A DNA stretch of 64,000 nucleotides from Pseudomonas sivasensis (GTDB lineage: Bacteria > Pseudomonadota > Gammaproteobacteria > Pseudomonadales > Pseudomonadaceae). The stretch spans positions 496,001 through 560,000 of the forward strand of contig NZ_JAAOWU010000003.1 in NCBI RefSeq assembly GCF_013778505.1, given 5' to 3'. The position numbers were made by a program, and so were the translations under genes. Each line of letters starts with the position of its first letter. Position 1 is the stretch's first letter. The notes under the pieces were generated by a model. That model was given only the letters and a program-made list of their open reading frames with translations, was not told the origin of the DNA and ran no database searches. Below are positions 38,046 through 53,586 of this stretch, in pieces.

Positions 38046-38351
38046 TTTCAGATCCCGGTGAATTTCACATCATTCTAGGATAACTTGCGGGTTATGAGCG
38101 TTTTCGAGATCTTTTGAAAATATCTCTATGACTACCACGGACGCACTGCCGCATAAGAGCGCATGGAAATGGTGGGGGCGCTGCAAGAACCAAGTAGATG
38201 ATTGATGGAGCGAAGGTGCACAGGCTTCGCTACAACGTCCCGTTCAACAGGTCAGCGCTGCAGTCATTTAGTCCACGTTGCCATCAATATCTCGCCCAAG
38301 CGGGGCTTTTGGGCCTACAGTCTTGAGTCTCGCTCACTGCAAGGAATACAA

Positions 38352-38813
38352 ATGAACGTGTTGCCTTCAACCTCTCCGCCAAAGCACGTCAGCCTGCTGG
38401 GTTATGGCGGTCTGTTGCCGTTTATTTTTCTGGCGCTGCTGATCCCGTTCTCTCTCGACTATCGGACGTTGTTTGAGAATGCGCTTGTCAACTATGGCGC
38501 AGTCATCCTGAGCTTCGTTGGAGCCTTGCACTGGGGCTTCGCTATGACCGTAGACATGAGTGCCAAGCAGTGTCGTGACCGGTTTATCTGGAGTGTCATT
38601 CCTGCGCTTATTGCTTGGATTGCCACATTACTACCAATGCCATTGGGTTGCTTGCTGTTGGTCATCGGCTTAGTTGCCCAACTCCGGCAGGATAGGCAAC
38701 TGTTGCGGGTTGTGAGCTTGCCCGCCTGGTACCTGCCGATGCGCTTACGGCTTACCCTCGTGGCGAGCGCTTGCTTGATGCTTGCCGCGATGGTTGAGGT
38801 GCTTAATTCATGA
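38352..38813 (+). CDS. DUF3429 domain-containing membrane protein
   Basis: A 153 aa inner-membrane protein with four to five hydrophobic helices and the family features L-L-G-Y-G-G-L-L-P-F and Y-G-A-V-I-L-S-F-V-G-A-L-H-W-G. I use the ATG at 38352, which has an AAGGA site; the frame is open further upstream but without family similarity. Function unknown. Confidence 0.85.
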   Translation: MNVLPSTSPPKHVSLLGYGGLLPFIFLALLIPFSLDYRTLFENALVNYGAVILSFVGALHWGFAMTVDMSAKQCRDRFIWSVIPALIAWIATLLPMPLGCLLLVIGLVAQLRQDRQLLRVVSLPAWYLPMRLRLTLVASACLMLAAMVEVLNS

Positions 38814-39290
38814 AGCCTCTTGTGCCCCGCTCGTTGCCCCTGACTTTGCGACGTCTAACCTGGCCGTACGCCGGTGTGATACCGATTGGTAACTAAGTGC
38901 CGACCGCGACTTCTGGCGTACGCCACCTGTGAATTTACTGTTGCTGCATCTTAAGGCAGGGAAGTTTGTATCTGTTGAACGAGAAGCTGAAGATGCGCGT
39001 GAAGAAGTGTTTTACAGCTACAGAGGATAAATCTGCACTCATGCTAGCGCGGAGGTGCAGATATCTGCTGCTGAGGCAAGCGGAGCGCGCAGGCGTGATG
39101 GATGGAAGCCCGGTAGGGCCGAGACACGAAGTGGCTCGGTGCACGACAGCCGTCCCCAGCGGGGCACGTCCAAGAACTACCTGTCCGGCTATAGGTATAG
39201 GCCTACAACATTCGATGTAGGTTCTGATGCCCCCACGTAGAGAGGAGAGCAATAGGATCAGCACCGTAGCGGCCATAAAGCGGTCGCTAA
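38814..39290. other. 477 bp intergenic with structured element copy 1
   Basis: Contains the structured element at 39076-39170. Otherwise nothing is supported between the converging DUF3429 and phosphatase genes. Confidence 0.5.
39076..39170 (+). ncRNA. Structured repeat element, copy 1
   Basis: First of three copies sharing GCAAGCGGAGCGCGCAG at the 5' end and ACGACAGCC near the 3' end. Hairpins: GCCC/GGGC (39108-39119); CCGAG-A-CAC with GTG-G-CTCGG (39119-39139); CGT-CCCC with GGGG-C-ACG (39151-39168). The strand is assigned from the shared orientation only. Whether it is transcribed is unknown; it could equally act as a DNA hairpin. Confidence 0.55.
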
Positions 39291-40433
39291 TCACAACTCC
39301 TTCAACATCCGCTCTAGTGTCTGATGCTCCCATGTGCTGAGCAGTGCAACTGGATCAGTGCCAAAGCGATCCCCGGAGTCAAACGACCAGTGTCGCCCAT
39401 CTGGACTGACGCATTGTTCACAGTAGTCGAGCTGATCGCAGTCGTTGTAAATCGATATCTCCCAACCGTCTACATTGATCTGGAAGTGGCCGGCATAAAT
39501 CTCGTCCCACGATTCATGACCCACCTTACTCATGACGGTTCGACCGAAAATCACCTCCCTAAGTACGTTGGATACCTCTCTTGCTGAGAGCTCAGCCGCA
39601 GTGTTTTCGCTAACGCTACCTACCTGGGATGAACGAGCTGCCGCTCTGGCCTCTTTCAGCCTTTGCTCAGCGTACATAGCCGGATCATCGTCTGGCAGCG
39701 GGTAGCCTGCAGCCGATAGGGCCTGGGCCCGCTCCTCAATCACCAGGCGCTCGGGATCGCGAACCGCTTGGTAGGATCTGCCTGGTACGCGTTGAGTTAC
39801 GCCAATTCGCAACTCCCCAGGACTTACTCTCCAGCCGGCATCGTCTGGGTGCTTGGTAAGGTTGTAACCAGAGCAGTTAGGCACGTGATTAGTGATCTCG
39901 TACTCTCGCCATTCGGCCATAGCTTGACCGTCAATCTTCTGTGGCCTGCACTCAATCAGCCAAGCCACCGCATTGATGAGTTGCCCGTGTGAAAACACGG
40001 CGACCTCCTGGGCAGGATGCTCTGCAATTCTATCTAAAAAAGACTGAGCTCTAGATATAAAGTCCAGGAATGACTCGGCGCCTTCACCATCCGTGAACGC
40101 TGGGTCTGACTTAGCCCAGTATTCCTCCACCCAAGCTCGTCTCTGGGCAACGGTGGTGTTGATACACCGTGCAGGTTCAAGGTAGGTGAACTCGTGAATG
40201 GGCCATATTTCAAACGGCACTGAAGGAAAAGCAGCCACTGTCTGCATTGCAGTTGCTTGCGCTCGGGAGAACGGCGAGGCAACGATCAGATCTGGGGCCT
40301 GGGCGAATGCCACGGCCACCAAGTGCGCTTGTTCAACACCCTTTGGCGTTAGGGGGATGCTCGCATGATCCGAACTGGCTTCTCCAGCGTTCGCGGCGCT
40401 TTCCCCGTGGCGAATCAGTCTGACGTGCTTCAC
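39291..40433 (-). CDS. Histidine phosphatase with C-terminal extra domain
   Basis: A 380 aa protein. Residues 1-200 are a phosphoglycerate-mutase-type histidine phosphatase with catalytic R-H-G-E (His9) and the second histidine in F-S-H-G-Q-L. After a linker, residues about 285-380 form a second domain (A-R-E-V-S-N-V-L-R-E-V, W-E-I-S-I-Y-N-D-C-D-Q-L-D-Y-C) that I believe occurs alone in other Pseudomonas proteins (DUF7693, from memory). A truncated relative is at 21800-22025. The substrate is unknown; such fusions are frequent in accessory regions. Confidence 0.8.
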   Translation of the reverse strand: MKHVRLIRHGESAANAGEASSDHASIPLTPKGVEQAHLVAVAFAQAPDLIVASPFSRAQATAMQTVAAFPSVPFEIWPIHEFTYLEPARCINTTVAQRRAWVEEYWAKSDPAFTDGEGAESFLDFISRAQSFLDRIAEHPAQEVAVFSHGQLINAVAWLIECRPQKIDGQAMAEWREYEITNHVPNCSGYNLTKHPDDAGWRVSPGELRIGVTQRVPGRSYQAVRDPERLVIEERAQALSAAGYPLPDDDPAMYAEQRLKEARAAARSSQVGSVSENTAAELSAREVSNVLREVIFGRTVMSKVGHESWDEIYAGHFQINVDGWEISIYNDCDQLDYCEQCVSPDGRHWSFDSGDRFGTDPVALLSTWEHQTLERMLKEL

Positions 40434-40583
40434 CGACCAAATACCCCCACTATTAGAGCCATCCGAACCTGCTCTCTACGCTATGGGCAACACCACAAGT
40501 GCCTCCCTTCCCCAAGGATACACCGCAGCCATGAGCACGAAAGACATCACGTAGAGAAAGAGGGATCGCGATAACCTCGAGGT

Positions 40584-41051
40584 TTATGTATTCCAATATT
40601 TCTGAACGGTAGTCCGTGCGATTCCGAGTTTTTCAGCGATTGTTTTCCGGTCAAAACCTTGCGCTTTCAAGGCTCGAATGTATTCCGCATTAAGCGGCTG
40701 CTTTGGCTTTCCCTGGGAACGCTTGATGAGCTTTCCATCACTGAATTGCTCCTCTACTAACTGCCACCCTCCGGACATCTCGAATTCCCTGATTCGCAAC
40801 GCAGTACGTTGCAAAGCCTCAGATGGAAGTTCTTCACCCTGCGCAGCGATGGCAAGAGTGACCATAGTCAAAAGGTCGAGGCCTAAGTAGTCAGCGATCT
40901 CGTCCAGTTTCTCCAGCGTCGGCGTCGTCCTGGCCTGTTCAAGCTTCCCTACATTCGTTCTATGCGTTGCTCCCGCCAGATCCTCGTAACTCAACCCTTG
41001 GTGTGCACGGGCTCCGCGTAATGCCCCCGCCAGCGCTTCCTTCAGATTCAT
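40584..41051 (-). CDS. XRE-type regulator with a second C-terminal HTH
   Basis: A 155 aa regulator. The N-terminal Cro/C1 HTH (Y-E-D-L-A-G-A-T-H-R-T-N-V-G-K-L-E) and a C-terminal recombinase-like HTH (F-D-R-K-T-I-A-E-K-L-G-I-A-R-T-T-V-Q-K-Y) give the same plan as the 10468-10965 product. I chose the ATG at 41051 (M-N-L-K-E-A-L-A-G-A), the position where the two relatives align. The upstream region near 41105-41125 has AT-rich partial symmetry and may be an operator. Confidence 0.75.
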   Translation of the reverse strand: MNLKEALAGALRGARAHQGLSYEDLAGATHRTNVGKLEQARTTPTLEKLDEIADYLGLDLLTMVTLAIAAQGEELPSEALQRTALRIREFEMSGGWQLVEEQFSDGKLIKRSQGKPKQPLNAEYIRALKAQGFDRKTIAEKLGIARTTVQKYWNT

Positions 41052-41348
41052 GAGTCGGATCCCCAAAAGCGAGGATAGAGCCACGGGGAGCATGTTTCGA
41101 TAAACAGATCATAGTGATATTATCGTGTCATTAGGCTCGTCAGGCAGTGGTGATCAAGGCGTCACGGCGTCAGGAGCGATGGTTTGATCAGGAGAGCGGG
41201 CTGGTGGGACATGGCTCGGTGGCCTTGACGCGAGCCGCTCCATAGAGCGTGCATTGAATGGCCTCCGCGTGCCTACCTGCAACCATCATTGAAGGCTTCC
41301 TGGCATGAACCGAATGCGTTTTTTAAGCGAAGGCAGGGATAGGTAGTA

Positions 41349-41906
41349 ATGAAATTTGATTGCGTGAAGTTTTCTGGGAAAGTCGATTACGTTCGGCATA
41401 CAGATCGTATAAGTGGAGGTTATAAGGCTAATGTCAGTATTGATGGGGCCGTGATACCAAAACTACAGCTGACGAATAAGTTCTACGAAGAGCTGGAGGC
41501 TGGCGAAAATGTGACGTTGTACGGCGTTTTTAAAAACAAAAGAAAAAAAGAAGAAAACGACGGCTTTATATATGGACTTCAGAAAGAGAGTGGCGAAAAA
41601 ATGTTCGCGACTCATTATAGATATCAAGTTCCTATTTTTATGGCATTTACGGCTGCTATAGCTTTTTGTCTGACATTCGTTGCAGGCTGGTTTGCATCGA
41701 TATTTCCAGTGCTGATGCTCTTTGGCAAAGATGATCCGAATTACATGTATAACACTACTGTATTTGCGACAATTGAAGCGACTATGGTCGCTGCTTTTTT
41801 TCTGTGGCGGGCTTGGCTAATGTTCAGCGTTACGGCGGATCCAGAAAGCTGGGAAACCATTGAGCCAGCAACTCTTTCGAGCCGCTTCAGTAAGTTTTAT
41901 AAGTAA
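41349..41906 (+). CDS. Membrane protein of unknown function
   Basis: A 185 aa protein. A soluble beta-rich N-terminal part (residues 1-95, OB-like by eye: V-T-L-Y-G-V-F-K-N-K) is followed by two membrane helices (about 98-122 and 138-158) and a short tail. The gene is A/T-rich compared with its neighbours, which points to transfer. Unrecognised. Confidence 0.65.
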   Translation: MKFDCVKFSGKVDYVRHTDRISGGYKANVSIDGAVIPKLQLTNKFYEELEAGENVTLYGVFKNKRKKEENDGFIYGLQKESGEKMFATHYRYQVPIFMAFTAAIAFCLTFVAGWFASIFPVLMLFGKDDPNYMYNTTVFATIEATMVAAFFLWRAWLMFSVTADPESWETIEPATLSSRFSKFYK

Positions 41907-42014
41907 AAAGGATTGCAGTGGGTGGGGTATGCGCCACGCTTGCCCCCTTGCTAGAGAGCGCAGTCAGAATCAAGTCTTGCTGCGCAGGACTATTCTTACC
42001 GTGCAGTTCAGAAG

Positions 42015-42113
42015 GCAAGCGGAGCGCGCAGGCGTGTGGGATGGACGCCCGAAGGGCCGAGACGTGCTTGTTACGGCTCGGTTCACGACAGCCCCCGCCG
42101 AAGGCGGCACGCC
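42015..42113 (+). ncRNA. Structured repeat element, copy 2
   Basis: Second copy. The central helix is CCGAG-A-CGT / ACG-G-CTCGG (42057-42081) with a 7 nt loop, and the 3' helix is CCGCC / GGCGG around a GAA loop (about 42095-42106). The inner pairs differ from copy 1 but still pair, so they covary. It lies directly upstream of the gene at 42146 and its ribosome-site hairpin. Confidence 0.55.
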
Positions 42114-42122
42114 AAAACACCG

Positions 42123-42139
42123 CTCCTTGTCAAAAGGAG
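42123..42139 (+). promoter_or_regulatory. Hairpin masking a Shine-Dalgarno sequence
   Basis: CTCCTT (42123-42128), loop GTCAA, AAGGAG (42134-42139). The right arm is the unusually strong ribosome site AAGGAGG of the gene at 42146, 5 nt before its ATG. In the mRNA this would hide the ribosome site unless opened. Its position just after structured element copy 2 suggests coupled regulation. Confidence 0.55.
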
Positions 42140-42145
42140 GTTTAA

Positions 42146-42553
42146 ATGACCTGCGATTTACTTCGCGAGCGTGAAAGAACCAGGAGAAGGGTTCTGTGGG
42201 CCCTTGCATGCCTCCGTCCTGGCGATCCCACTGCATCCGAGCTCCTTGCCACCCTTGATGAGCTCGACGACCTAGATCTAAACCCTACGTCCTCTACTCA
42301 GAAGCCTCTCGAACTCATTGAGGTTCGTAATTCTGTCTCGGTGGAGCGTCATCACTCCGGAATCGACATCATCTTGGAACATACCATTCCGCAACCCTGG
42401 AGGGAGCGTTTCCATCAGGCAAGCATCGGGTCGACCAGGTTGGTCGATGGGCCATACGCCTCAGGCTGGGATAAATTCCTGGCGAGTTGGGAAGCAGAGA
42501 TGCGACACCTGGAGCAGCACCGGGCCGCAAGAAATAAATCTAAAAAAGACTGA
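42146..42553 (+). CDS. Hypothetical protein
   Basis: A 135 aa protein, charged and helical (R-E-R-E-R-T-R-R-R-V-L-W-A-L-A-C-L at the start; W-E-A-E-M-R-H-L-E-Q-H-R near the end). No family recognised. It has a near-consensus AAGGAGG site that lies in a hairpin. The next gene starts 12 bp after its stop, so the two form an operon. Confidence 0.6.
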   Translation: MTCDLLRERERTRRRVLWALACLRPGDPTASELLATLDELDDLDLNPTSSTQKPLELIEVRNSVSVERHHSGIDIILEHTIPQPWRERFHQASIGSTRLVDGPYASGWDKFLASWEAEMRHLEQHRAARNKSKKD

Positions 42554-42565
42554 GCGGGTGAGGGC

Positions 42566-42778
42566 ATGGGACAAGACGATGACAAGGTGTACTGCGATAT
42601 CCAGATGCCGCTAGCCCAAGGGCGAGAGCTTCTGGAGTTAGTGAATGCACTGCGAGAATCGAAAGCTCATCCGCGTCTCGAAAAAGTCTTCGAGCACATG
42701 CAAGACGAACTCAGTACATCCATCGATTTCGTTGAAAACCCACCAACCAGGGACTTGTTTTGGCCGACGCACCACTGA
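42566..42778 (+). CDS. Small hypothetical protein
   Basis: A 70 aa acidic protein (M-G-Q-D-D-D-K-V-Y-C-D-I, then R-E-L-L-E-L-V-N-A-L-R) immediately downstream of the 135 aa gene, with GGGTGAGGG before its ATG. Unrecognised. It could be an antitoxin- or adaptor-like partner of its neighbour, but nothing in the sequence shows that. Confidence 0.55.
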   Translation: MGQDDDKVYCDIQMPLAQGRELLELVNALRESKAHPRLEKVFEHMQDELSTSIDFVENPPTRDLFWPTHH

Positions 42779-42811
42779 ACATCGGCACTAGAGCATCAAG
42801 GGGGATAGATG

Positions 42812-43501
42812 CTAAGGCCAGCGTACTAGCTGAAGCTCCTTGATTCGAATCGCCATCGCAATATCCGAAACCCCAAATTGAACCGAAAGTGGAATTAAAT
42901 TACGGTTATTGAACCGGGCACACCTTGCCAGCGAAATCTCTCGATCAAGCGAATCCCTTTCTGCGTTCAGAAGCGACCATGGATCTGAAGGGTTGAGGTG
43001 GTAACAGGTGGTATCGGTGAAAGGGAAGGGGCCCTTCATTTGAAATTGAGCAGCAAAAGCATCCAGTAGAAGTCGGGCTGGTATCAAAAAACACGCCGCA
43101 AAGTAATCAGCCTCCCTTTCCTTGGGAGGGCGTTGTCCTCGTGCCGATCCGTCCAAAGGCTTGTCACGATGCATCACCTCATCTTCATGAAGCAAAAAGT
43201 GACCGACCTCATGAGCGCCGGTGAACCGGATCACATTTAGTGGGAATTCGGTGGAAACTGCTATGCGTCGAATCGAGCGATTCATTAAACCAGCAGCCTT
43301 GAAGCGCTCTCCCTCTCGCCCGAACAGTGGAGAGCCCAGGTCAGGAAGGAGCTGGTAATCAAGTCCTAAAATATGGGCCGCGACCTCAGGTGCCAGCATC
43401 TGAAATGGCGTCAGGTGTCGGTTTGGCCATAAGCGTTCTTGGTTGTCCCAAATTTCCTTATGAAGACGATGGGCTGCTTGCTGAATGCTTTCACGGTTCA
43501 T
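42812..43501 (-). CDS. ImmA/IrrE family metallo-endopeptidase
   Basis: A 229 aa protein with the zinc-protease motif H-E-V-G-H (in G-A-H-E-V-G-H-F-L-L-H-E-D-E) and the downstream E-R-E-A-D-Y-F-A-A-C-F-L segment that supplies the third ligand. Family members cleave repressors of mobile elements or stress regulons. It ends in a small extra helical domain of about 70 residues. No cognate XRE gene is adjacent. An alternative start is the ATG at 43516, which overlaps the operator repeat; I prefer 43501. Confidence 0.85.
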   Translation of the reverse strand: MNRESIQQAAHRLHKEIWDNQERLWPNRHLTPFQMLAPEVAAHILGLDYQLLPDLGSPLFGREGERFKAAGLMNRSIRRIAVSTEFPLNVIRFTGAHEVGHFLLHEDEVMHRDKPLDGSARGQRPPKEREADYFAACFLIPARLLLDAFAAQFQMKGPFPFTDTTCYHLNPSDPWSLLNAERDSLDREISLARCARFNNRNLIPLSVQFGVSDIAMAIRIKELQLVRWP

Positions 43502-43508
43502 AGCTTTG

Positions 43509-43551
43509 TGCACCATATGATGTGCTATTTTAGCATCCTATGCACCATATG
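43509..43551 (-). promoter_or_regulatory. Direct repeats flanking the ImmA/IrrE promoter
   Basis: TGCACCATATG occurs exactly twice (43509-43519 and 43541-43551), 32 bp apart or about three helical turns, each containing the palindrome CATATG. Between them, on the minus strand, TAAAAT can serve as a -10 box. This looks like a paired repressor site for the ImmA/IrrE gene. Confidence 0.6.
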
Positions 43552-43690
43552 TAGTGTTGTCAACGACCTGTAATGCCAGGGTAATGTCGGGGTAAAGAGG
43601 CGAGTGGGCTCCCGGTACTCGTGCGCTGGTTACTCCAGCCCAGAACCCATTCCGGTGCCTTTTCTGTTGCGATCCAGACTAGCGACTACC

Positions 43691-44176
43691 CTAGCTCAAG
43701 GTTTGCGTTCGCAGCCACGCTTTCACTTTTTGCCATCGGCCCACCTCGGAAAGCTTTGACCTTCCTGTATCTAGAATCTCAAGCAGTCGCTGTCTCTCCG
43801 CACGAGAGGGAAACCAATCATCAATCTCGACGCTGCAGTGGATAGACTCGCTCAGTGCCCATTTCACGATCATGTCCGCAGCGGCTCTGTAGTGATCTGC
43901 CATGAACAGACGATAGCCATCCACAGACCAGCCGCGCTCCGCCAGCTCATCGGTCATGTCGATGATGCCCATGTCGCCAAAGTAGCCGGTAGTGTCAGGA
44001 TAATGGATCCCCGCCAACGACACCTTGGCCACCCCTGATTCTCGATCAAAATAGGAAAGGAAATGCCATCCACCGGTGGTGCTTCCAGGATGTGGAAAAT
44101 TGATGGCGGCCTTGCCTGTTATGTAGTTTTCGCGGGATGCGCGTTTGAGGTCAAAGTCGAAGAGTGGCCTGTTCAT
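43691..44176 (-). CDS. Hypothetical protein, three-copy family (copy C)
   Basis: A 161 aa intact relative of the 27317-27793 product (M-N-R-P-L-F-D-F-D-L-K-R, then G-S-T-T-G-G-W-H-F-L-S-Y-F-D-R-E). It stands alone, without the ~70 aa partner or the SH3 gene. The start at 44176 is chosen by alignment with copy A; a GTG at 44194 is also in frame with GGAGG inside the extension. Function unknown. Confidence 0.65.
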   Translation of the reverse strand: MNRPLFDFDLKRASRENYITGKAAINFPHPGSTTGGWHFLSYFDRESGVAKVSLAGIHYPDTTGYFGDMGIIDMTDELAERGWSVDGYRLFMADHYRAAADMIVKWALSESIHCSVEIDDWFPSRAERQRLLEILDTGRSKLSEVGRWQKVKAWLRTQTLS

Positions 44177-44484
44177 GGGCAAGCTTGCCTCCACGGGTAA
44201 GCTAAAAAACGTCAGACATGCCTCTCCACGTCAAAAGTAATTAGCGGTATTAGCTGCGACGATACCTGAAGTATCGATAGATTCTTTGTCCAGCGGACAA
44301 TGACGACGATTCAGGCACGGTAGCCACATCCTATTTAGTAGGTGTGTGCAAGAGGCAAGAGTGACCAAAGGCTCATTACGCGGCTGACGAGACGCGCTAT
44401 CATCGCGCCATTAGCTCAATCGGGGCTCCCTTGACCTGGCATTCGCCTGCACCCCCATGGGCACTGAGACAAGGATGTTTGCGC

Positions 44485-47400
44485 GTGGACGAACTCGTTC
44501 AGCATGTCACCTTACCAGCAGAACCGAAGCTGAAAGAGCTCAAGATCCTCGCTACGCTGGTGTCAAAGCTCAACCTGGCAGACTTCCAGAACGCAATCCC
44601 AGTGATCCATGAGCTGCGTCTCGCGAATGAAACTGGCGAGTGCTATCTCAATGCTACGTTGACTCTGACATCCTCGCCCGAAGTGTTGAAGCGGAAGAGC
44701 TGGCGTATTGAGGAGATTGCAACAGAGTCGTTTCGAACCCTTCCTGGTCTCGATCTTGTGCTGGATGGGCCCTTGCTCAGCAGGTTGACTGAAGCTGAAA
44801 TGTCTACGTTCCTCTTCGTCCTTGAAGCCGATTGCAAGGAGGCTGAAGGAGGGCACAAAGTTATTGCGCAACTGGAGCAAGTCGTTGAGCTGCTACCTCG
44901 GAACCAGTGGGGTGGATTGCGTCATATCCCGGAAATGACGGCTGCGTTCGTTCAACCAAACGATCCAGCGGTAGAGCGTGTTCTCAAGCAGGCTGCCGAG
45001 TTGCTTCGTTTGAGCGAAAAATCTCCTGCACTGGATGGTTATGCCGGTGGCCCTAAGCGAGCATGGCAGCTTGCTTCAGCCGCGTGGGGTGCTGTTGCTC
45101 GGATGAAACTTGACTACTCATTGCCGCCGGCCAGTTTCGAACAGTTCGGTCAGAAAGTGCGAAGCCCTAGCCAGATTGCCGATTCTGGCCTAGCAACCTG
45201 TATGGATTTGACCCTATTCCTGTGTGCAGCGCTGGAGCAGATCGGCCTTAACCCTGTCATCGTGTTTACTAAAGGCCATGCGTATGCAGGGGTTTGGCTG
45301 AAGCCTGAAGAGTTCACCACTACACTCATCGACGATGTCACGACAGTGCGTAAAAGAGTGAAGCTCAAAGAGCTAGCTCTGTTTGAAACTACGTTGCTTA
45401 CTCAGCCATCAATCCCGTCGTTTGGATATGCAGTCGAACGTGGAGCCAAGCAGATTGACGAGGATGCTGAGGCCGAGTTCGAGATGCTGCTTGATGTTCG
45501 ACGTGCTCGACTTCAACGTATCAAGCCCTTGGCCAGCTCCGAGGCTCAGATTGCCCGGGTTGTAACAGGCGAGTCGAGCGAGGCGCCTTTTCTTCTAATT
45601 GATGATGGTGACGATATTCCCGACGAAATGGTGAATATCGAAATCGAAGACATCGCTAAGCTCAATCCAAAAGATAGGTTGGAGCGATGGCAGCGCAAGC
45701 TGCTTGATCTCTCGCTACGTAACAACCTGCTCAATTTCAAATATGGCAAGAGAGCTCTCAAGCTTGAGGCGCCGGATCCTGGAGCACTCGAAGATATTCT
45801 CGCCAGCGGGCAGTCTCTGAAGCTTTTGACCCGCCCAGACCTCATGGATGGGGCAGACCCGCGTGAGAAAGAAATTTACGAGCAGCGTGAGCGTGAGGAT
45901 GTTCGCCGGCGTCACGCTGAGGATGCCCTGAAGCGTCGAGAGGTTTTTGTCGCTCTAACCTCTCGCGAGATGGATGCGCGCTTGACCGAGCTCTATCGCG
46001 GCGCTCGTACCGCTTTGCAAGAGGGCGGAGCTAACATATTGTTTCTCGCTGTTGGCTTTTTGAGGTGGACGCGCGAAGACAAAGGGGGACAGAAATACAG
46101 CGCACCTCTGTTGCTCATCCCTGTCAGCCTTGAGCGTAAAAGTGCACGTTCAGGTTTTTCAATTGTGCTCCATGATGAGGAGCCTTGCTTCAATCCAACT
46201 CTCATCGAAATGCTTCGGCAGGATTTCCAGTTAGGCTTAGGGACATTGGAAAGTGAGCTTCCTCGAGATGAATCGGGGTTGGATATTGTCGGGATTTGGC
46301 GGCGAGTAGGTCACGCTATTAAAGACATTTCAGGATGGGAGTTATCTGAAGAAGTTACCCTAGCCATGTTCTCGTTTGCCAAGTATCTAATGTGGAAAGA
46401 CCTGTCAGAAAACGCTAGCCACTTGCGGCAGAGTCCAGTCGTCCAGCATCTTCTCGACACCCCAAGGGATTCCTTTGCATCTGATACGCCTTTCCCGGAT
46501 GCCAGATTCCTTGATCGTGAATACGGCCCAGCAGATGTGTTCTGCCCGTTGCCGTCAGACTCCTCCCAGCTCGCCGCCGTGATGGCTGCGTCCAAGGGAA
46601 AAGATTTTGTGCTTATCGGCCCACCCGGTACCGGTAAAAGCCAGACAATTTCTAACATGATCGCCCAGTCAATTGCTCAGGGTCGACGCGTATTGTTTGT
46701 CTCCGAGAAGATCGCTGCCCTGGACGTTGTCTACAGACGGCTCCGTGAGATCGGTCTTGGAGAGTTCTGTCTCGAGATTCACTCCAGCAAAGCGCGCAAA
46801 GCGGACGTACTAGCCCAACTGCAATCAGCTTGGGAAGCCAAGGGAGAGATTGACACGCAAGCTTGGGAGGTTGAGGCGCAGAGGCTCGCTTCTATCAGAG
46901 ATAGTTTGAATATCTACGTTGAGCGATTGCACAACCGGTATCGCAATGGGTACACCGTGTTTGACGCGATCGGTACGGTCACCTCCGGTACTGACGAGCC
47001 GGTAGCTCCATTGAGTTGGATATCTCCTGAAATCCATGACCAGAAGGCAATGCTGGAAATTCGCGAGATTGGTGACCGCCTAGAGGTCAACGCTCAAGAG
47101 GTGGGGTATGAACACCTAGGCAAGCATTCACTTTCCGGAATCGGGCAGTCGGAATGGTCGCCCCATTGGACGCAACAGTTTTTGCAGGCTTCTCGTGATG
47201 TTCTGCCTGCGGTTCTTGATGCCCAAAAAGCTGCTGACGGGTTTATTGAGTTTGCAGGGTTGCCAGCAGTTCCTCATACACCTTCGGCTCTTCAAGGGTT
47301 GTCAGCTCTATCTTTGGTGCTTCCGACTGCTGCCGGCCATGACTGGCGCTTCGCCTTGCTGCCAAGCGCCCGATCGATCGCGCAGCGTCTAACCGATGGG

Positions 47401-50400
47401 TGTAATTGGATTGAGGAGCACCGTGATCTGACGAGCAGTTTGTCGCAGATCTGGCCGACTCGGGTTGTGGGAGAAGCCAAGAGTGCAATGGATCTTTTGC
47501 AACAGCGAAGGACGACATTAGATTCCATGAGTCCTGCTTGGTCTTCTGCCGTGATCGACACGATCCAAGATGGACTCGCCAAGTTTGCAAAAATCAAGGA
47601 GCTGACAGATCAGCTTTTGGTAACCTACACCGACGCGGTCGAAACGCTCGATGTTGAACAACTTCACCAAGAGTGGGTAAAGGCTGATGAGGCCATTTGG
47701 CCTAAATCTTGGCTTGGCAAGCGTCGTGTTAATGCCACCCTCGCTGCAGTTCAGGCAGTAGCTGGAGAAGCTGATGTTGCAAGGGATCTTTCGACTTGGA
47801 TTGAGATTCGTGGTCAGCGGAAACTCATTGACGAACTCCAGCCTGGAGCCCAGTGCGGAGACGTTTGGAACGGATCTAAATCTAATCCTAGCCACCTAAC
47901 CAGCTCCCTAGCTCTTCAGTTCGCCTTGGCGAATCAGATGAACAACTCTGAGTGGCACGACGAAGGATTTGATGTCGTTGAACAGGGGCATTTAGGCGAG
48001 GCTCTAAAGGCCCAGCTCTCGCGCATGCGCGCTATTGTTCGTCTCGACAGTGAGTTGGCTAAATTCGATGAGCTTGGTTGTCATACCTCCGGCCTGTGGA
48101 GAGGGCTTGCTACAGAGTGCGAATTACTTACGGCGGCATTGCAGTTTCAGGCTGAGCGGCGAGAAATAGAAGTGCGTGGTCGCCTAACCGATGACCATCC
48201 TCATGTGGAGGAGGGGCGTTGTGGCCAAACCCTGAAAGATGACTACATCCTACTCAAGAAGCGCGGCATTCTTGAGCGACAGTTGGCTGACCTTGCTGAT
48301 CTTCGTGAAACTGTGCCCTTTTGGAGTGACCTGAAGACAAAGGTGGATGACGCACGTCAGGCAGTGCTGTTCCAAGGTCAAATTGCGGTCGCCTTGGCTA
48401 AGCTAGCCCAAAACCCCGAGCAAATCGCAGGGTTTAAGGGGCCATTGAGTGTGCTGCTCGGAGAGGGTAACGCTCTGCTGGAACCTGAGGGCGCTATCCA
48501 CCAGTCTGGGATCGCCCTCCGTGAAAAACTTCAACAGTTGGAAGTCCGGTCAGCACATTTGACCGCTGTGGGTCAGTTCACTGAGCAGGCAGTAGCCATA
48601 AATTCAGAGCTGTCTCTTGATGAATTGAGGCAAAATTGTGAGTTGATGATCGTGTCTGAGCCTCGTCTGAGAGCTTGGTGCGCTTGGCGTAAAATCCGTG
48701 ATGAGGCTTTTGCGGTTGGCCTGGCTCCGATTGTGGAAGCTATGGAGAAAGGAGCAATTGCTCTCGGCAATGTGCGTCGAGTGCTTGAAGTGAACTACGC
48801 ACGGTGGTGGTTGAATGCGACCGTCGATAACGAAGCTGTAATTCGAACGTTCGTCAGCGCCGAACACGAACAGCGCATCCGTGATTTCCGAGCTCTGGAT
48901 GATAAATTCACTTCGTTGACTCGTGACTGGTTACGGGCGCGCCTGTGTTCAGAGCTTCCTAGCCAGGAAAGCGTAAGTCGCTCTTCTGAGTGGGGTTTAC
49001 TGCGTCACGAGATGAGTAAAAAAACCAGGCATATGCCGTTGAGGGAGCTGATGAGTCAGGCACCGGGTGCGCTGACAAAGCTCACCCCTTGCTTGTTGAT
49101 GAGTCCGCTGTCGATTGCTCAGTATCTGCCATCAGGTACTACTCCGTTCGACTTGGTGATTTTTGATGAGGCCTCTCAAATTCCTGTCTGGGATGCGATT
49201 GGCGCGATGGCTCGTGGGCGCCAGGTTGTCATGGTTGGTGACCCCAAACAGCTACCGCCAACATCCTTTTTCGGGCGCGCAGAGTCTGGATCTGACGATG
49301 AGGACACCGAAGCTGACCTGGAAAGCATTCTGGATGAGTGCATCAGTGCCAACCTCCCGACTCGAAAGCTCAGTTGGCACTATCGTAGCCGCCATGAAAG
49401 TCTCATCGCGTTCTCGAACCAACGCTATTACCAGTCTGAGCTGGTTACCTTTCCGTCGCCATTCACTGCGGATAAAGCTGTCACGCTTCATCCCGTCGCC
49501 GGTGTGTATGACAGGGGTGGATCGCGAACAAATCGCATCGAGGCCCAGGCACTCGTCGCGCATCTCGTTGCCCGTCTGAGGTCGCCGACGTTCAGGCAGT
49601 CGGGACATACCGTAGGAGTGGTTACCTTCAACAGCGAACAACAAAAGCTGATTGAAGATTTACTCGATGAGGCGTGCAGGAAGGATCCGTCGTTGGATAG
49701 CTATTTCTCGGAGTCGCTACTGGAGCCCGTTTTCGTCAAAAACCTGGAGAGCGTTCAAGGTGATGAACGAGACATCATCTATTTCTCCATTACGTTCGGT
49801 AAGGATGCAGCAGGCCACACATCGATGAGCTTTGGCCCGATGAACGAGCAGGGTGGCGAGCGTCGTTTGAACGTGGCGATAACTCGAGCGCGTCAAGAGC
49901 TTGTGGTGTTCTCCACTACGCGTCCTGAACATATGGATCTCTCCCGAACCAAGAATGAGGGCGTACGAGACCTGAAGCACTTCCTTGAATTCGCCGAGCG
50001 TGGCCCTCGTGCTCTGGTGGAAGCAGATTTTGGAAGTGTCGGAGGCTTCGATAGCCCCTTCGAGAAAGCAGTCGCCGCCGCGCTGTCCAAAAAGGGATGG
50101 CAAGTCCACACACAGATCGGCGTATCGTCCTTCCGAATTGACCTGGGCGTAGTTCACCCCGACGCACCTGGTCGATTTCTCGCGGGCGTCGAATGTGATG
50201 GCGCTACTTACCACCGCAGCGCTACTGCTCGAGACAGGGACAAACTTCGTGAATTTGTGCTGCGCGGGTTGGGCTGGGAAATCGTCAGAATTTGGTCGAC
50301 CGATTGGTGGATCGATGCTTTAGGGACGGCGGACAAGGTTCATCAGAAGCTCACTGCATTATTGGAGGCTTCGCGTGCGAAACAGGCGGAAATTGATGCG

Positions 50401-51111
50401 GTGGAGGAAGCTGAACGGCTCAAGGCTGACGCAGCAGTAGCCGAGGTGATCGAAATAGCTGAGCAGGTCGGCCAAGTAGTATTAGGCGAGGAGGGTACTC
50501 CCGTTGCCAATGATCCTGCGCTGGGCATGCCAGAACTGAAGTACGCGAGAGCGGCTGATATAGAGGGCACGAACAAGTACGTGGCTTACGAGCCCGTGAG
50601 CTATCTAGTTTATCGAGAAACAGATCCTGCCCAGGCTGTAGACAATGTGAACCCAGATCTCTTCTTTGAAACAGAGTACACGCCGCTTCTGCAGAGCATG
50701 ATCGCGCACGTCGTGAACGAAGAAGGCCCAATTTTGAATACAGTTCTGGCGAGGCGTATTGCCAGGGCACACGGCTGGGTACGCACTGGAGCACGTATCC
50801 GGGATCGCGTGGATCAAGTTGCTCTCGCGCATTTCAGATCTCACGAGGAGGAGCTTGGTACCTTCTTTTGGCCGATTCATTTGCAGTCAGACTCAACTTC
50901 ATTTCGCCGCCCTGGTGATGATGACTCTACGCGCAGCCTCAGCGAAATTTGCCTTCAGGAGCTATCTGCGCTTGTAGGGGAGATGGAAAGCAAAGGGCAT
51001 GAGGCTGAAGCGCTGATTTACGCCGTCGCTAAGGAAGCAGGTGTCACGAAGCTTGCTCACGCTGGCCGCTTGCGTATAGAGAAAGCCATAAAACATCGCA
51101 GAGATGTTTAG
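44485..51111 (+). CDS. DUF4011-helicase-Vsr-DUF3320 giant protein (Hhe-type defense)
   Basis: A 2208 aa protein. Order of parts: a transglutaminase-like segment (A-T-C-M-D-L-T near 237, G-H-A-Y near 264, D-D near 282); DUF4011 near 395-425 (W-Q-R-K-L-L-D-L-S-L-R-N-N-L-L-N-F); SF1 helicase with Walker A G-P-P-G-T-G-K-S near 712 and Walker B F-D-E-A-S near 1560; helicase motifs Q-G-D-E-R-D and A-I-T-R-A-R further on; a Vsr/DUF559-like nuclease near 1855-1960 (V-E-C-D-G-A-T-Y-H); and DUF3320 near 2065-2200. This matches the single-gene Hhe anti-phage type (DUF4011-helicase-Vsr). The GTG at 44485 with AAGGA is preferred to the TTG at 44431. Confidence 0.8.
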   Translation: MDELVQHVTLPAEPKLKELKILATLVSKLNLADFQNAIPVIHELRLANETGECYLNATLTLTSSPEVLKRKSWRIEEIATESFRTLPGLDLVLDGPLLSRLTEAEMSTFLFVLEADCKEAEGGHKVIAQLEQVVELLPRNQWGGLRHIPEMTAAFVQPNDPAVERVLKQAAELLRLSEKSPALDGYAGGPKRAWQLASAAWGAVARMKLDYSLPPASFEQFGQKVRSPSQIADSGLATCMDLTLFLCAALEQIGLNPVIVFTKGHAYAGVWLKPEEFTTTLIDDVTTVRKRVKLKELALFETTLLTQPSIPSFGYAVERGAKQIDEDAEAEFEMLLDVRRARLQRIKPLASSEAQIARVVTGESSEAPFLLIDDGDDIPDEMVNIEIEDIAKLNPKDRLERWQRKLLDLSLRNNLLNFKYGKRALKLEAPDPGALEDILASGQSLKLLTRPDLMDGADPREKEIYEQREREDVRRRHAEDALKRREVFVALTSREMDARLTELYRGARTALQEGGANILFLAVGFLRWTREDKGGQKYSAPLLLIPVSLERKSARSGFSIVLHDEEPCFNPTLIEMLRQDFQLGLGTLESELPRDESGLDIVGIWRRVGHAIKDISGWELSEEVTLAMFSFAKYLMWKDLSENASHLRQSPVVQHLLDTPRDSFASDTPFPDARFLDREYGPADVFCPLPSDSSQLAAVMAASKGKDFVLIGPPGTGKSQTISNMIAQSIAQGRRVLFVSEKIAALDVVYRRLREIGLGEFCLEIHSSKARKADVLAQLQSAWEAKGEIDTQAWEVEAQRLASIRDSLNIYVERLHNRYRNGYTVFDAIGTVTSGTDEPVAPLSWISPEIHDQKAMLEIREIGDRLEVNAQEVGYEHLGKHSLSGIGQSEWSPHWTQQFLQASRDVLPAVLDAQKAADGFIEFAGLPAVPHTPSALQGLSALSLVLPTAAGHDWRFALLPSARSIAQRLTDGCNWIEEHRDLTSSLSQIWPTRVVGEAKSAMDLLQQRRTTLDSMSPAWSSAVIDTIQDGLAKFAKIKELTDQLLVTYTDAVETLDVEQLHQEWVKADEAIWPKSWLGKRRVNATLAAVQAVAGEADVARDLSTWIEIRGQRKLIDELQPGAQCGDVWNGSKSNPSHLTSSLALQFALANQMNNSEWHDEGFDVVEQGHLGEALKAQLSRMRAIVRLDSELAKFDELGCHTSGLWRGLATECELLTAALQFQAERREIEVRGRLTDDHPHVEEGRCGQTLKDDYILLKKRGILERQLADLADLRETVPFWSDLKTKVDDARQAVLFQGQIAVALAKLAQNPEQIAGFKGPLSVLLGEGNALLEPEGAIHQSGIALREKLQQLEVRSAHLTAVGQFTEQAVAINSELSLDELRQNCELMIVSEPRLRAWCAWRKIRDEAFAVGLAPIVEAMEKGAIALGNVRRVLEVNYARWWLNATVDNEAVIRTFVSAEHEQRIRDFRALDDKFTSLTRDWLRARLCSELPSQESVSRSSEWGLLRHEMSKKTRHMPLRELMSQAPGALTKLTPCLLMSPLSIAQYLPSGTTPFDLVIFDEASQIPVWDAIGAMARGRQVVMVGDPKQLPPTSFFGRAESGSDDEDTEADLESILDECISANLPTRKLSWHYRSRHESLIAFSNQRYYQSELVTFPSPFTADKAVTLHPVAGVYDRGGSRTNRIEAQALVAHLVARLRSPTFRQSGHTVGVVTFNSEQQKLIEDLLDEACRKDPSLDSYFSESLLEPVFVKNLESVQGDERDIIYFSITFGKDAAGHTSMSFGPMNEQGGERRLNVAITRARQELVVFSTTRPEHMDLSRTKNEGVRDLKHFLEFAERGPRALVEADFGSVGGFDSPFEKAVAAALSKKGWQVHTQIGVSSFRIDLGVVHPDAPGRFLAGVECDGATYHRSATARDRDKLREFVLRGLGWEIVRIWSTDWWIDALGTADKVHQKLTALLEASRAKQAEIDAVEEAERLKADAAVAEVIEIAEQVGQVVLGEEGTPVANDPALGMPELKYARAADIEGTNKYVAYEPVSYLVYRETDPAQAVDNVNPDLFFETEYTPLLQSMIAHVVNEEGPILNTVLARRIARAHGWVRTGARIRDRVDQVALAHFRSHEEELGTFFWPIHLQSDSTSFRRPGDDDSTRSLSEICLQELSALVGEMESKGHEAEALIYAVAKEAGVTKLAHAGRLRIEKAIKHRRDV

Positions 51112-51209
51112 TTGTCGACAGTAGCGAGTGGAATGGGTAGCCGCTTGGGGCGGCTCGCCCGATGAAATTCAACCTTAACCACGAGTCTGCTATAAGAGCC
51201 TGCACCACG

Positions 51210-52013
51210 TTACTGAGCGTACTTTGTTTGGAGTGCGGTTAGCCTCGTTGCATCACGCTCGGTGAATGAGCCTGCGTCGAATAAAGGCTTATCATCAGCA
51301 CCATCAAGCCGTTCGACGGTAACGGTGAAGATGGCATCCTTTGGTGGTTCGACCTTGCCCCAGTCCGAGAACTGATTAGGTGCGAGATTCCAGGATTGAG
51401 ATTCGCCAGGTTCCAAACCACCGCTGATTGAGTAATTGAACGTTTCGACAAGCCAAGGCACTGAGCGTCCAGGAGACGCGATGGTGCCTTTGAAATACGC
51501 CCGTGACACGGCGCTGGCAGTCCCGTTATTCACCGTTATTTCGATGATAGGTTGGTTACCAAGGCCATACTCTTTAACCCTTTGATAGAAGCGAGACTTT
51601 GAAACTTGGAAGCGGGCTAATTCTTCTTTTGCAGCTCCGGATTTTTTTTGCTTTTCGACCAGCTCCTGAATTTCCGTTAACGCCTGTTGCCGCTCTTTTT
51701 CCGCACGCTCTGTCCGGATGCGGTTTGCTTCATCGGTAACCTGCTGAGCAGTCTTCCCGTTAAGCGCAACAAGCATTTCTGCGGACGCACCGTCGGCATT
51801 TTTCTTGCCCTGTAGAACCTGAGAAATATCGAGTCCCTGAAATGCAAGCACCATCACATCAGATGCGAACTGCTTGCGCTTGTCCTCAGGCAAACTCGCA
51901 GCAACCTTCGCTGCAGAGTCTTTGAAAGCCTGTTGGGAGCTACCGTCCAGCTTCGGCTCGCCACAGCCAGCTAGCATCCCTGCCATCAGCGTTATGCACA
52001 TAACTCGACGCAT
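51210..52013 (-). CDS. DUF6694-like lipoprotein
   Basis: A 267 aa predicted lipoprotein with lipobox L-A-G-C at about residues 14-17, then an acidic helical region with Lys/Glu-rich coiled coil (about 90-145) and a beta-rich C-terminal part. The N-terminal third (A-F-K-D-S-A-A-K-V, then G-K-T-A-Q-Q-V-T-D-E-A) recalls the DUF6694 lipoprotein family (from memory). The ATG at 52013 has GAGAGGG at proper distance; the ATG at 52019 is too close to it. Confidence 0.7.
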   Translation of the reverse strand: MRRVMCITLMAGMLAGCGEPKLDGSSQQAFKDSAAKVAASLPEDKRKQFASDVMVLAFQGLDISQVLQGKKNADGASAEMLVALNGKTAQQVTDEANRIRTERAEKERQQALTEIQELVEKQKKSGAAKEELARFQVSKSRFYQRVKEYGLGNQPIIEITVNNGTASAVSRAYFKGTIASPGRSVPWLVETFNYSISGGLEPGESQSWNLAPNQFSDWGKVEPPKDAIFTVTVERLDGADDKPLFDAGSFTERDATRLTALQTKYAQ

Positions 52014-52258
52014 CTGCATTCCCTCTCAGAAAATTCAGGGCAGCATATCAAAATGATGTCGGAATGCGATCTGTACAGGTAGGTGGGGCTCCTTTGACAG
52101 TGAGTCTAAAGTTTTATAGTCCTTCGCTCGGCAGCGATTTTTTAGAACCATACCAGTCACCTGAAAAATTTCAGACTCGTCATGTATGATCCGCTGATCC
52201 GCTGATGTCTGGTCTGCGACTATGGCGATGATCCGATTTGGTTGGCCTTTCGGTATCG

Positions 52259-52450
52259 CTATTTTTTAACCAGGTCTTTGTATAACTCACGGGCCGCAAG
52301 GATCTGATCCCTGAGTTCCTCGGGGTCAATGCGCATGCCACCGCGAGGCGTTACCTGAAGCGTCTTTAGGCGGTTCGCAGCTTTAATGAATTCCTGTTCT
52401 TCTGCCTGAACCCACGCGGGGCGCTTGTCTTTCCAAAAGAGCCAACCCAT
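52259..52450 (-). CDS. Hypothetical protein
   Basis: A 63 aa charged, helical protein (M-G-W-L-F-W-K-D-K-R-P-A-W). I take the ATG at 52450, with GAGG 8 bp upstream. The frame is open to 52534, where it would run into structured element copy 3. Unrecognised. Confidence 0.5.
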   Translation of the reverse strand: MGWLFWKDKRPAWVQAEEQEFIKAANRLKTLQVTPRGGMRIDPEELRDQILAARELYKDLVKK

Positions 52451-52537
52451 TTGCCCGGCCTCATCTTTGATCGGATGCTCAGCAGTATGTGGGAGCGGTA
52501 GCCAATGTCCAAGCAAGAAGGTGAGTCGGATCACTCT

Positions 52538-52653
52538 GCAAGCGGAGCGCGCAGACCAGGAGGGTCGAAGAGCATGAGGATGGAAGCCCGAAGGGCCAAG
52601 ACCAGTCCACGACTGGGCTTGGTTAACGACAGCCGTCCCTGAAAGGGCATGCC
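52538..52653 (+). ncRNA. Structured repeat element, copy 3
   Basis: Third copy, longer by an insertion after the GCGGAGCGCGCAG block that itself can fold (GACC/GGTC). The central helix is CCAAG-A-CCAGTC / GACTGG-G-CTTGG (52596-52622). Compared with copy 1, the third pair of CCGAG/CTCGG changed from G-C to A-T on both sides. The 3' helix is CCCT/AGGG around GAA with the same bulged C as copy 1. Confidence 0.55.
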
Positions 52654-52675
52654 ACGATAACCGCAGCGTCGATGA

Positions 52676-53278
52676 CTACCGAAAGGTGCGCTGATCAAAT
52701 GATCGGGACACAACTCCCTGTGCGCAAAGATCATACGTTTTGCGCAACGCTACTTCTTCGCCAGAAGACACCCTCGCATGAGCGAAAATAGTCGACAAAA
52801 AACGCCTCCGCTCGCCATTGCCGAGTTCTGACCAGATCCTTGGCTGACCTTGTGCATCAGGAATCGCCAACCGGTCGAGGAGATACTCTTCCAGGCTGTG
52901 AAGGCGTTGCTGGCCATCAATCAAGATTTCACTGTTTTCGGCTAATGCCCTGCTACCGATCACTGGCTCGTACCAGTCATTCGTGAGGTAGCTCCCCAGG
53001 TCTGCCCCTGACCAAACAGCGGTAATGAAACGAGCCTTCTGGCCTAGGCTCCACTCCACGCCTCGCGCCCAAATTGGTACGGGCATGCCCATGACAAAGT
53101 GCGCAGCCCACGGAAAGCAATCACGAGCGGAGGAGGGGTCTACCAGATACTTTTCCCAATGGCCGACTAAGACCTCGAGGGGACAATGACTGACGGTCGT
53201 GGGCAGAACACGCTGCGGCATACGGATGTGCAGGTCTGATGTTCCGACGTCGGCGTATCGTTTAAAAAAGGCAGTCAT
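52676..53278 (-). CDS. DUF262 (ParB/sulfiredoxin-like) protein
   Basis: A 200 aa protein containing the DUF262 core I-L-I-D-G-Q-Q-R-L-H-S-L, the NTP-binding-like D-G-Q-Q-R motif shared with GmrS/GmrD-type restriction proteins. It lacks the DUF1524 HNH domain usually fused to it. The ATG at 53278 overlaps the stop of the upstream gene (ATGA), so the two genes are translationally coupled. The longer open frame to 53557 is in another gene's shadow. The C-terminus (S-L-E-E-Y-L-L-D-R and onward) is short compared with full GmrSD. Confidence 0.75.
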   Translation of the reverse strand: MTAFFKRYADVGTSDLHIRMPQRVLPTTVSHCPLEVLVGHWEKYLVDPSSARDCFPWAAHFVMGMPVPIWARGVEWSLGQKARFITAVWSGADLGSYLTNDWYEPVIGSRALAENSEILIDGQQRLHSLEEYLLDRLAIPDAQGQPRIWSELGNGERRRFLSTIFAHARVSSGEEVALRKTYDLCAQGVVSRSFDQRTFR

Positions 53279-53586
53279 GGTTTTCCTGGGTAGCTCAGGT
53301 TGGTCGAAGTATTCAGGTAAGTACGCGCGCATCGCCACGCGTCCAACGTTGCAATGATCAGCAGATCCCGATCTGTGGAGATATCGATCTGCCCGCTGTC
53401 GGCACAAGCATGTGCATAGCCCTCGGCATAGGCTGCCGCTTTGTTGAATTCGGATGTGCAGGTTGCGGATTCGATGTAGCCGATCAGCCGCTCCCATGTG
53501 CGCCGCTGGCGGTTGCCGAGAATCGTGAGGGGGAACGACAAGGCGCCGCTCAGGCACTGTGCGAAGTCATGTGTAGAGAGGGTCAA
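53275..53586 (-). CDS. Hypothetical protein coupled to DUF262 gene
   Basis: A 103 aa helical protein (W-E-R-L-I-G-Y-I-E-S-A-T, A-A-A-Y-A-E-G-Y-A-H-A-C-A-D) whose stop overlaps the DUF262 start. The overlap suggests a two-component unit. No family recognised. Confidence 0.65.
   Translation of the reverse strand: MTLSTHDFAQCLSGALSFPLTILGNRQRRTWERLIGYIESATCTSEFNKAAAYAEGYAHACADSGQIDISTDRDLLIIATLDAWRCARTYLNTSTNLSYPGKP

What the first reader, a model, noticed from the sequence alone, without database searches (positions are those of the whole stretch)
39076..52653. Three-copy structured element with covarying helices
Elements at 39076-39170, 42015-42113 and 52538-52653 share the blocks GCAAGCGGAGCGCGCAG, GGATGGAAGCCC-like, and ACGACAGCC, all on the plus strand. 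The central helix pairs in all three although its bases differ: CCGAG-A-CAC/GTG-G-CTCGG, CCGAG-A-CGT/ACG-G-CTCGG, CCAAG-A-CCAGTC/GACTGG-G-CTTGG. The 3' helix also covaries: CCCC/GGGG, CGCC/GGCG, CCCT/AGGG. Two independently covarying helices indicate selection for structure, as RNA or folded single-stranded DNA. I do not recognise it as a named RNA family.
Basis: partly seen in the sequence, partly recalled or inferred. Interest (0 to 1): 0.75.

Follow-up and report, generated by a model that had tools for sequence, protein, structure and literature searches.

The report
Folded single-strand DNA priming site repeats
Three copies of a roughly 100-base element in this window belong to a structure-conserving family, unmatched in Rfam, that recurs in same-strand clusters among shuffled genes of Pseudomonas genomes and also sits on conjugative plasmids and filamentous phages, where it likely folds as single-stranded DNA and would start the copying of incoming mobile DNA into double strands.

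Summary
All three copies are real, and at least 12 copies score in the window's genome. Rfam has no match over them. On a model-fitted alignment of 133 hits, 18 of 21 pairs change on both sides, with 285 such cells against 66 in shuffles. G-T against A-C counts favour folding of the strand that is + in the window.

The family is wider than this island. In 41 of 41 short loci with two or more copies, all copies share a strand. A window copy hits 966 plasmids, 783 typed conjugative. F carries two copies, one in each half of the repeat that holds its Frpo ssDNA promoters, opposite most leading-region genes. Filamentous phages carry relatives on their coding strand. Neighbouring genes differ from locus to locus on one side of the element while the other side is shared.

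Best reading: a folded single-stranded-DNA site that starts second-strand synthesis (ssi type), possibly primosome-loading. This function is inferred, not shown. An integron-like exchange site is the most novel reading not excluded.

The parts
39076..39170 (+). Element copy E1
   Evidence: Exact 17-mer; R2 98.7 bits at 39074-39173. Lies between a DUF3429 gene (38202-38813 +) and a His_Phos/DUF7693 gene (39291-40433 -).
42015..42113 (+). Element copy E2
   Evidence: Exact 17-mer; R2 109.3 bits at 42013-42116. 32 nt before the ATG of a 135-aa ORF (42146-42553 +).
52538..52653 (+). Element copy E3, long form with an extra hairpin after the 17-mer
   Evidence: Exact 17-mer; R2 87.5 bits at 52553-52656. 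22 nt before the stop end of a 293-aa ORF on the - strand (52676-53557) with a sub-threshold GmrSD_N match.
42015..42031 (+). Invariant 5' 17-mer of E2
   Evidence: Seven exact copies in the genome; other own copies read GCAAGCGGAGCGCGCCGG. 12 of 13 bases match phiX174 2356-2368.
42031..42036 (+). Outer helix P1 of E2, 5' strand (pairs with 42108-42113)
   Evidence: A4 helix 1: 6 of 6 pairs with changes on both sides, 94.0% of cells paired.
42108..42113 (+). Outer helix P1 of E2, 3' strand
   Evidence: A4 helix 1.
42047..42057 (+). Hairpin P2 of E2 (GCCC GAA GGGC)
   Evidence: A4 helix 2: 95.7% of cells paired; 1 of 4 pairs with a change on both sides, 3 of 4 vary on one side only.
42058..42080 (+).
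   Evidence: A4 helices 3 and 4: 7 of 7 pairs with changes on both sides, 97.7% and 86.6% of cells paired.
42085..42093 (+). Conserved ACGACAGCC of E2, unpaired in the consensus
   Evidence: Present in 6 of the 7 exact-17-mer own-genome copies.
42095..42107 (+). 3' hairpin P4 of E2 (CCGCC GAA GGCGG)
   Evidence: A4 helix 5: 4 of 4 pairs with changes on both sides, 93.0% of cells paired.

Best explanation
The three window copies belong to a covarying, strand-specific element that recurs in same-strand clusters on Pseudomonas chromosomes and also sits on conjugative plasmids, mostly opposite the leading-region genes, and on the coding strand of filamentous phages; it likely acts as folded single-stranded DNA that would start second-strand synthesis, as an ssi-type, possibly PriA primosome-loading, site. 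Shown: the family, its covariation, the same-strand clusters, its place in plasmids (on F inside each half of the Frpo repeat) and in inoviruses, and loci that share one flank of the element but not the other. Inferred: when a mobile segment is single-stranded (a conjugative T-strand, a packaged phage strand, or possibly a one-strand circle made by a recombinase), the 17-mer and the hairpin cluster fold and recruit the host priming machinery. Inferred: the chromosomal copies are carried or left behind by such segments, and each module keeps its own copy. Untested: which protein binds, and whether the chromosomal arrays ever become single-stranded.
For: Structure: 18 of 21 pairs with changes on both sides (fitted alignment). 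Folding strand: G-T 54 against A-C 13 on 67 non-redundant rows of the fitted alignment; on a structure-naive MAFFT alignment 62 against 35 (p = 0.008) or 56 against 32 (p = 0.014), by reference copy. In 6 of 6 copies folded with DNA parameters the E strand was the more stable one. Orientation: 41 of 41 loci of up to about 14 kb with two or more copies have all on one strand, 54 adjacent pairs (some loci are near-duplicates). Plasmids: the window copy hits 966 records, 783 conjugative. Genes opposite the element in the stretches read: 6 of 7, 7 of 9, 13 of 13, 13 of 13 and 17 of 18 CDS in five IncF-type or MOBF enterobacterial plasmids, 6 of 6 in a Polaromonas plasmid. F: copies at 58089-58189 and 63477-63578 on the - strand, 65.5 and 62.3 bits with R2, which was not trained on them, inside a 559-nt, 89% identical repeat, 58070-58621 and 63458-64011. 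That repeat abuts ssb and the gene I take to be ygeA; the ssDNA promoters Frpo2 and Frpo1 are described upstream of ssb and ygeA (PMC9849209, passages). [quoted passage not shown] Phages: in the inovirus record OM868077, 15 of 16 CDS lie on the element's strand (R2 28.1 bits); in 11 of 11 IMG/VR contigs with the Zot, replication or integrase families those genes run on the element's strand. Resemblance to a known priming region: CAAGCGAAGCGCG at phiX174 2356-2368, F-G intergenic, same strand, 12 of 13 bases, reached in 58 of 20000 shuffles; that the PriA site lies there is recalled. Not promoter-like: G+C median 0.69; best TATAAT match 3 of 6 in 58 of 67 copies.
Against: No binding, priming or transfer was measured. 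The phiX174 comparison was made after recalling AAGCGG as a PAS hexamer and is modest; ColE1, G4, Pf1 and Pf3 give weaker matches to the 17-mer, and R2 finds nothing at E up to 1 in the phiX174 piece, ColE1, G4, Pf1 or Pf3. The window copy has no match in the phage collection at E up to 0.01. Enterobacterial plasmid copies keep GCAAGC but not the rest of the 17-mer, and most plasmid hits cover only about half of the query. One F copy overlaps an annotated hypothetical CDS on its own strand (57807-58163). In F the element lies beside an RNA-polymerase promoter and may only serve it. On pDTG1 4 of 12 CDS lie on the element's strand. Of the 11 inovirus contigs, 8 were tried with R2 and scored 19-45 bits; L021, L026 and L040 have the 17-mer but little of the structure. 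Most of the window was not annotated for transfer genes, so an ICE or plasmid origin is not shown. Swapping of neighbours is not predicted by priming alone.
Confidence: 0.45

Rival explanations
1. An integron-like exchange site: the element is the structured attachment site of gene cassettes, recognised as a folded bottom strand and recombined by tyrosine recombinases encoded at array ends.
For: Same-strand clusters with genes in between. Gene families recur next to the element with changing neighbours: family F3 follows the element directly in 16 of 18 loci while the gene before it varies. Pairs of loci share one flank at 88% identity or more and lack the other: 23 left-only, 25 right-only; the element is more alike in the right-sharing pairs (median 0.87 against 0.71; unrelated pairs 0.54). 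Tyrosine-recombinase ORFs end within about 25-110 nt of an element at own C23, own C54, G004 and G005.
Against: A PF00589 match lies within 10 kb of only 8 of 17 clusters in five genomes, and of none in the window's own cluster; against rotation P = 0.03 and 0.18 on two complete chromosomes. All elements are homologous, so blast cannot place the crossover inside the element. Gene orientation between elements is mixed (189 sites: 69, 43, 42, 35, home-made ORF caller). In the window the DUF7693-HTH junction lacks the element that relative L166 has. Priming sites on plasmids and phages would not need it.
Confidence: 0.22
2. An accessory of single-stranded-DNA promoters (Frpo type): the fold helps RNA polymerase transcribe leading genes from incoming single strands.
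For: Both F copies lie inside the Frpo repeat unit; on enterobacterial plasmids the element lies among leading-region operons.
Against: G+C-rich with no -10-like box on either strand. On the Pseudomonas chromosomes the gene before the element points either way (112 opposite, 77 same of 189), and in the window two of three copies have no gene placed to be read from them.
Confidence: 0.13
3. A transcribed RNA: a small RNA or a 5' leader, dispersed with mobile genes.
For: E2 and its counterpart in L007 precede homologous ORFs by a short leader; G-T over A-C fits RNA as well as DNA.
Against: Neighbouring genes differ in family and direction; relatives sit on the strand opposite the genes on plasmids; no Rfam relative.
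Confidence: 0.12

Closest known systems
ssi sites and Frpo (ssiD) of F
   Same: On F the element is part of the 559-nt repeat that includes the Frpo loci, on the strand opposite most leading genes. Frpo is described as a folded ssDNA site for transcription and priming (PMC7690428, PMC7736820, PMC9849209, passages).
   Different: Frpo makes -10/-35 boxes; the element is G+C-rich and lies at one end of the repeat. It also occurs on chromosomes without an evident Frpo hairpin.
phiX174-type primosome assembly site (recalled)
   Same: The 17-mer matches phiX174 2356-2368 at 12 of 13 bases on the viral strand.
   Different: The hairpin cluster is not found there by R2.
Integron attC cassettes (recalled)
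   Same: Folded site recognised by structure, same-strand clusters, shuffled genes.
   Different: No attC core boxes are evident; no integron integrase was shown; recombinase ORFs adjoin only part of the clusters.
SE, GInt and other multi-recombinase islands (PMC10214605 section 0 part 1 and passages; PMC5385486 passages)
   Same: Multi-gene operons with tyrosine recombinases adjoin some clusters; SEs circularise one strand.
   Different: No srap or gin membership was shown; the element is not described in the passages seen. Gamma-Mobile-Trio is recalled for one operon and was not tested.
STAXI motif (PMC2864571, passages)
   Same: Structured motif near SSB, antirestriction and integrase genes, discussed there as possible ssDNA.
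   Different: A repeated pseudoknot; Rfam gave no match here.

Membership tests
ssi (single-strand initiation) site | Lies on a strand that becomes single-stranded | tested here: met
   Met for plasmids and phages by strand: opposite leading genes and on the inovirus coding strand; pDTG1 mixed. Which strand is transferred or packaged is from the literature and recall. Not shown for the chromosomal arrays.
ssi (single-strand initiation) site | Starts complementary-strand synthesis | not testable with these tools
   Needs a biochemical or genetic assay.
PriA primosome assembly site | Sequence and fold shared with known sites | tested here: inconclusive
   17-mer matches phiX174 at 12 of 13 bases; ColE1 weaker; no R2 hit.
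Frpo ssDNA promoter | -10 and -35 boxes formed by the hairpin | tested here: not met
   Best TATAAT match 3 of 6 in 58 of 67 copies, 5 of 6 in one; G+C median 0.69. -35 not scanned.
Integron attC | Crossover at a fixed place in the site, by an integrase | tested here: inconclusive
   Flanks change at the element, but the place inside it is unresolved; recombinase within 10 kb of 8 of 17 clusters.
Any Rfam family | Match at or above the curated score | tested here: not met
   0 matches in the window.

The most novel reading that the evidence does not exclude
The element is the structured, single-strand-folded exchange site of an unrecognised integron-like system in Pseudomonas: same-strand arrays of gene cassettes, each bounded by a copy, built by multi-gene tyrosine-recombinase operons, with the same folded module reused on conjugative plasmids and filamentous phages as a second-strand start.
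Probability: 0.2. Interest if true: 0.85.

Novelty: new variant of a known kind. Interest (0 to 1): 0.6.

Why it matters
If right, one folded-DNA module links three ways in which DNA travels as a single strand, and it marks where accessory genes are exchanged on chromosomes. It gives a covariance model for finding such segments, and it makes the question of how incoming single strands are converted to double strands testable at a defined site beside the F Frpo promoters.

Tried and rejected
IS end or simple repeat: no transposase seen at the three copies, and covariation is not expected of one. Known RNA family: none. tRNA or tmRNA: none in the window. Cis-regulator of one gene: neighbours vary. 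Replicon-wide strand bias: not supported, since clusters of both strands lie on single contigs. Recombinase platform for every cluster: rejected, 8 of 17. An early belief that blast boundaries at base 0/1 fix the crossover at the 5' end was dropped: the element is homologous in all pairs, so the boundary is only where shared homology ends. Word searches for four sequence strings from the element found only unrelated hits in 6 papers. Two word searches for related literature gave no paper describing it; the PMC library held here lacks most subscription papers.

Full report
The finding. Three + strand copies at 39076-39170, 42015-42113 and 52538-52653 were read directly and are beyond chance. 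Rfam has no match at the gathering scores in the window; at E up to 5 over 38900-53000 the one match lies elsewhere and on the other strand.

More copies. The exact 17-mer occurs 7 times in the window's genome. Model R1, from four short copies, finds 12 copies at E up to 0.001, and so does R2; only 150 candidates were scored each time, and one search shows a further 17-mer-like start in L163, so 12 is a floor. The 17-mer is in 90 of 398 sampled genomes of the same genus, against 1 for the reversed control pattern. That the genus is Pseudomonas is inferred: positions in G114 coincide with named Pseudomonas lundensis locus L054. In a sample of the order only 2 of 145 genomes matched R2 at 1e-5, the own genome and one of its family (stricter filters), so the chromosomal form is largely a matter of this genus. 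A scan of viral contigs gave 35 stretches.

Structure. R1 over 85 sources gave 133 hits. Their alignment has 18 of 21 pairs with changes on both sides and 93.9% of cells paired. It is fitted to the model, and the sample was drawn by the 17-mer. On 67 non-redundant rows G-T exceeds A-C by 54 to 13. Realigned without structure the ratio is 62 to 35 or 56 to 32. This favours folding of the E strand, as RNA or as single-stranded DNA. With DNA parameters the E strand was the more stable in 6 of 6 copies, though single minimum-energy folds do not always show the whole consensus.

Arrays. All 41 loci with two or more copies (of the loci L008 to L157) have them on one strand. Some loci are near-duplicates. 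Longer stretches can switch strand. By eye, in the listed part nine switches within 150 kb run - then + and one runs + then -. This polarity is unexplained.

Exchange. Gene families recur beside the element with changing neighbours. Of pairs with both flanks readable, 72 share only the left flank and 102 only the right, 96 both. At 88% identity or more there are 23 left-only and 25 right-only pairs, with element identity medians 0.71 and 0.87, against 0.54 in 400 pairs that share neither. Pairs are not independent.

Recombinases. PF00589 matches lie close to several clusters. At own C23 and C54 the last ORF of a multi-gene operon ends 36 and 24 nt before an element; at C23 its PF00589 score is below the cut-off. 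In five genomes searched for both, 8 of 17 clusters have a match within 10 kb. The window's cluster has none.

Plasmids. A 501-base query around E1 had already hit E. coli plasmids at the element itself. E2 hits 966 plasmid records, 56 of them over at least 80% of the query. In the stretches read, the element is opposite most genes, mixed on pDTG1; on pNCGM3741 8 of 8 CDS to its right are opposite. F carries two copies on the - strand, within a 559-nt repeat; leading genes there are mostly +. The leading-region literature was seen in passages (PMC9849209; PMC11541004; PMC3817090). PMC3817090 proposes that a 9.7-kb fragment between Frpo repeats may be mobile.

Phages. The window copy has no match in the phage collection. 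A query from an IMG/VR contig (L042) hit two inovirus records; in OM868077 15 of 16 CDS are on the element's strand. R2 scores it at 28.1 bits and eight IMG/VR contigs at 18.7-44.6 bits. Zot was confirmed by Pfam in L020 only; other contigs carry it or its companions by blastp clustering.

Function. The common factor of these contexts is DNA that is single-stranded at some stage, with the element on a fixed strand. The invariant 17-mer matches a stretch of the phiX174 F-G intergenic region, recalled as the site of PriA assembly. The best-supported mechanism is a folded single-stranded-DNA start for second-strand synthesis. Priming is inferred. The exchange of neighbours keeps an integron-like role open.

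Noticed in passing
G000:C23, C54 and relatives: Where element strand switches along a contig, it nearly always runs - then + (nine against one by eye in the listed part). No explanation found.
   Followed up: partly
window 44431-51111: A 2226-aa ORF with DUF4011, AAA_11/12, MTES_1575 nuclease and DUF3320 domains, defence-like, between E2 and E3.
   Followed up: no
L166 7505-11700: A UvrD-like and an OLD/TOPRIM ATPase gene side by side, Gabija-like by recall, between oppositely oriented elements.
   Followed up: no
L161 92-5508 and L163 524-8063: Two multi-gene operons with tyrosine recombinases, each ending just before an element; most of their ORFs have no Pfam or NCBIfam match.
   Followed up: partly
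L069: A 4586-base contig labelled Streptomyces carries a copy; likely contamination or mislabelling.
   Followed up: no
NZ_CP102430.1: The 98-kb plasmid record holds its gene set twice about 49 kb apart, perhaps an assembly dimer.
   Followed up: no
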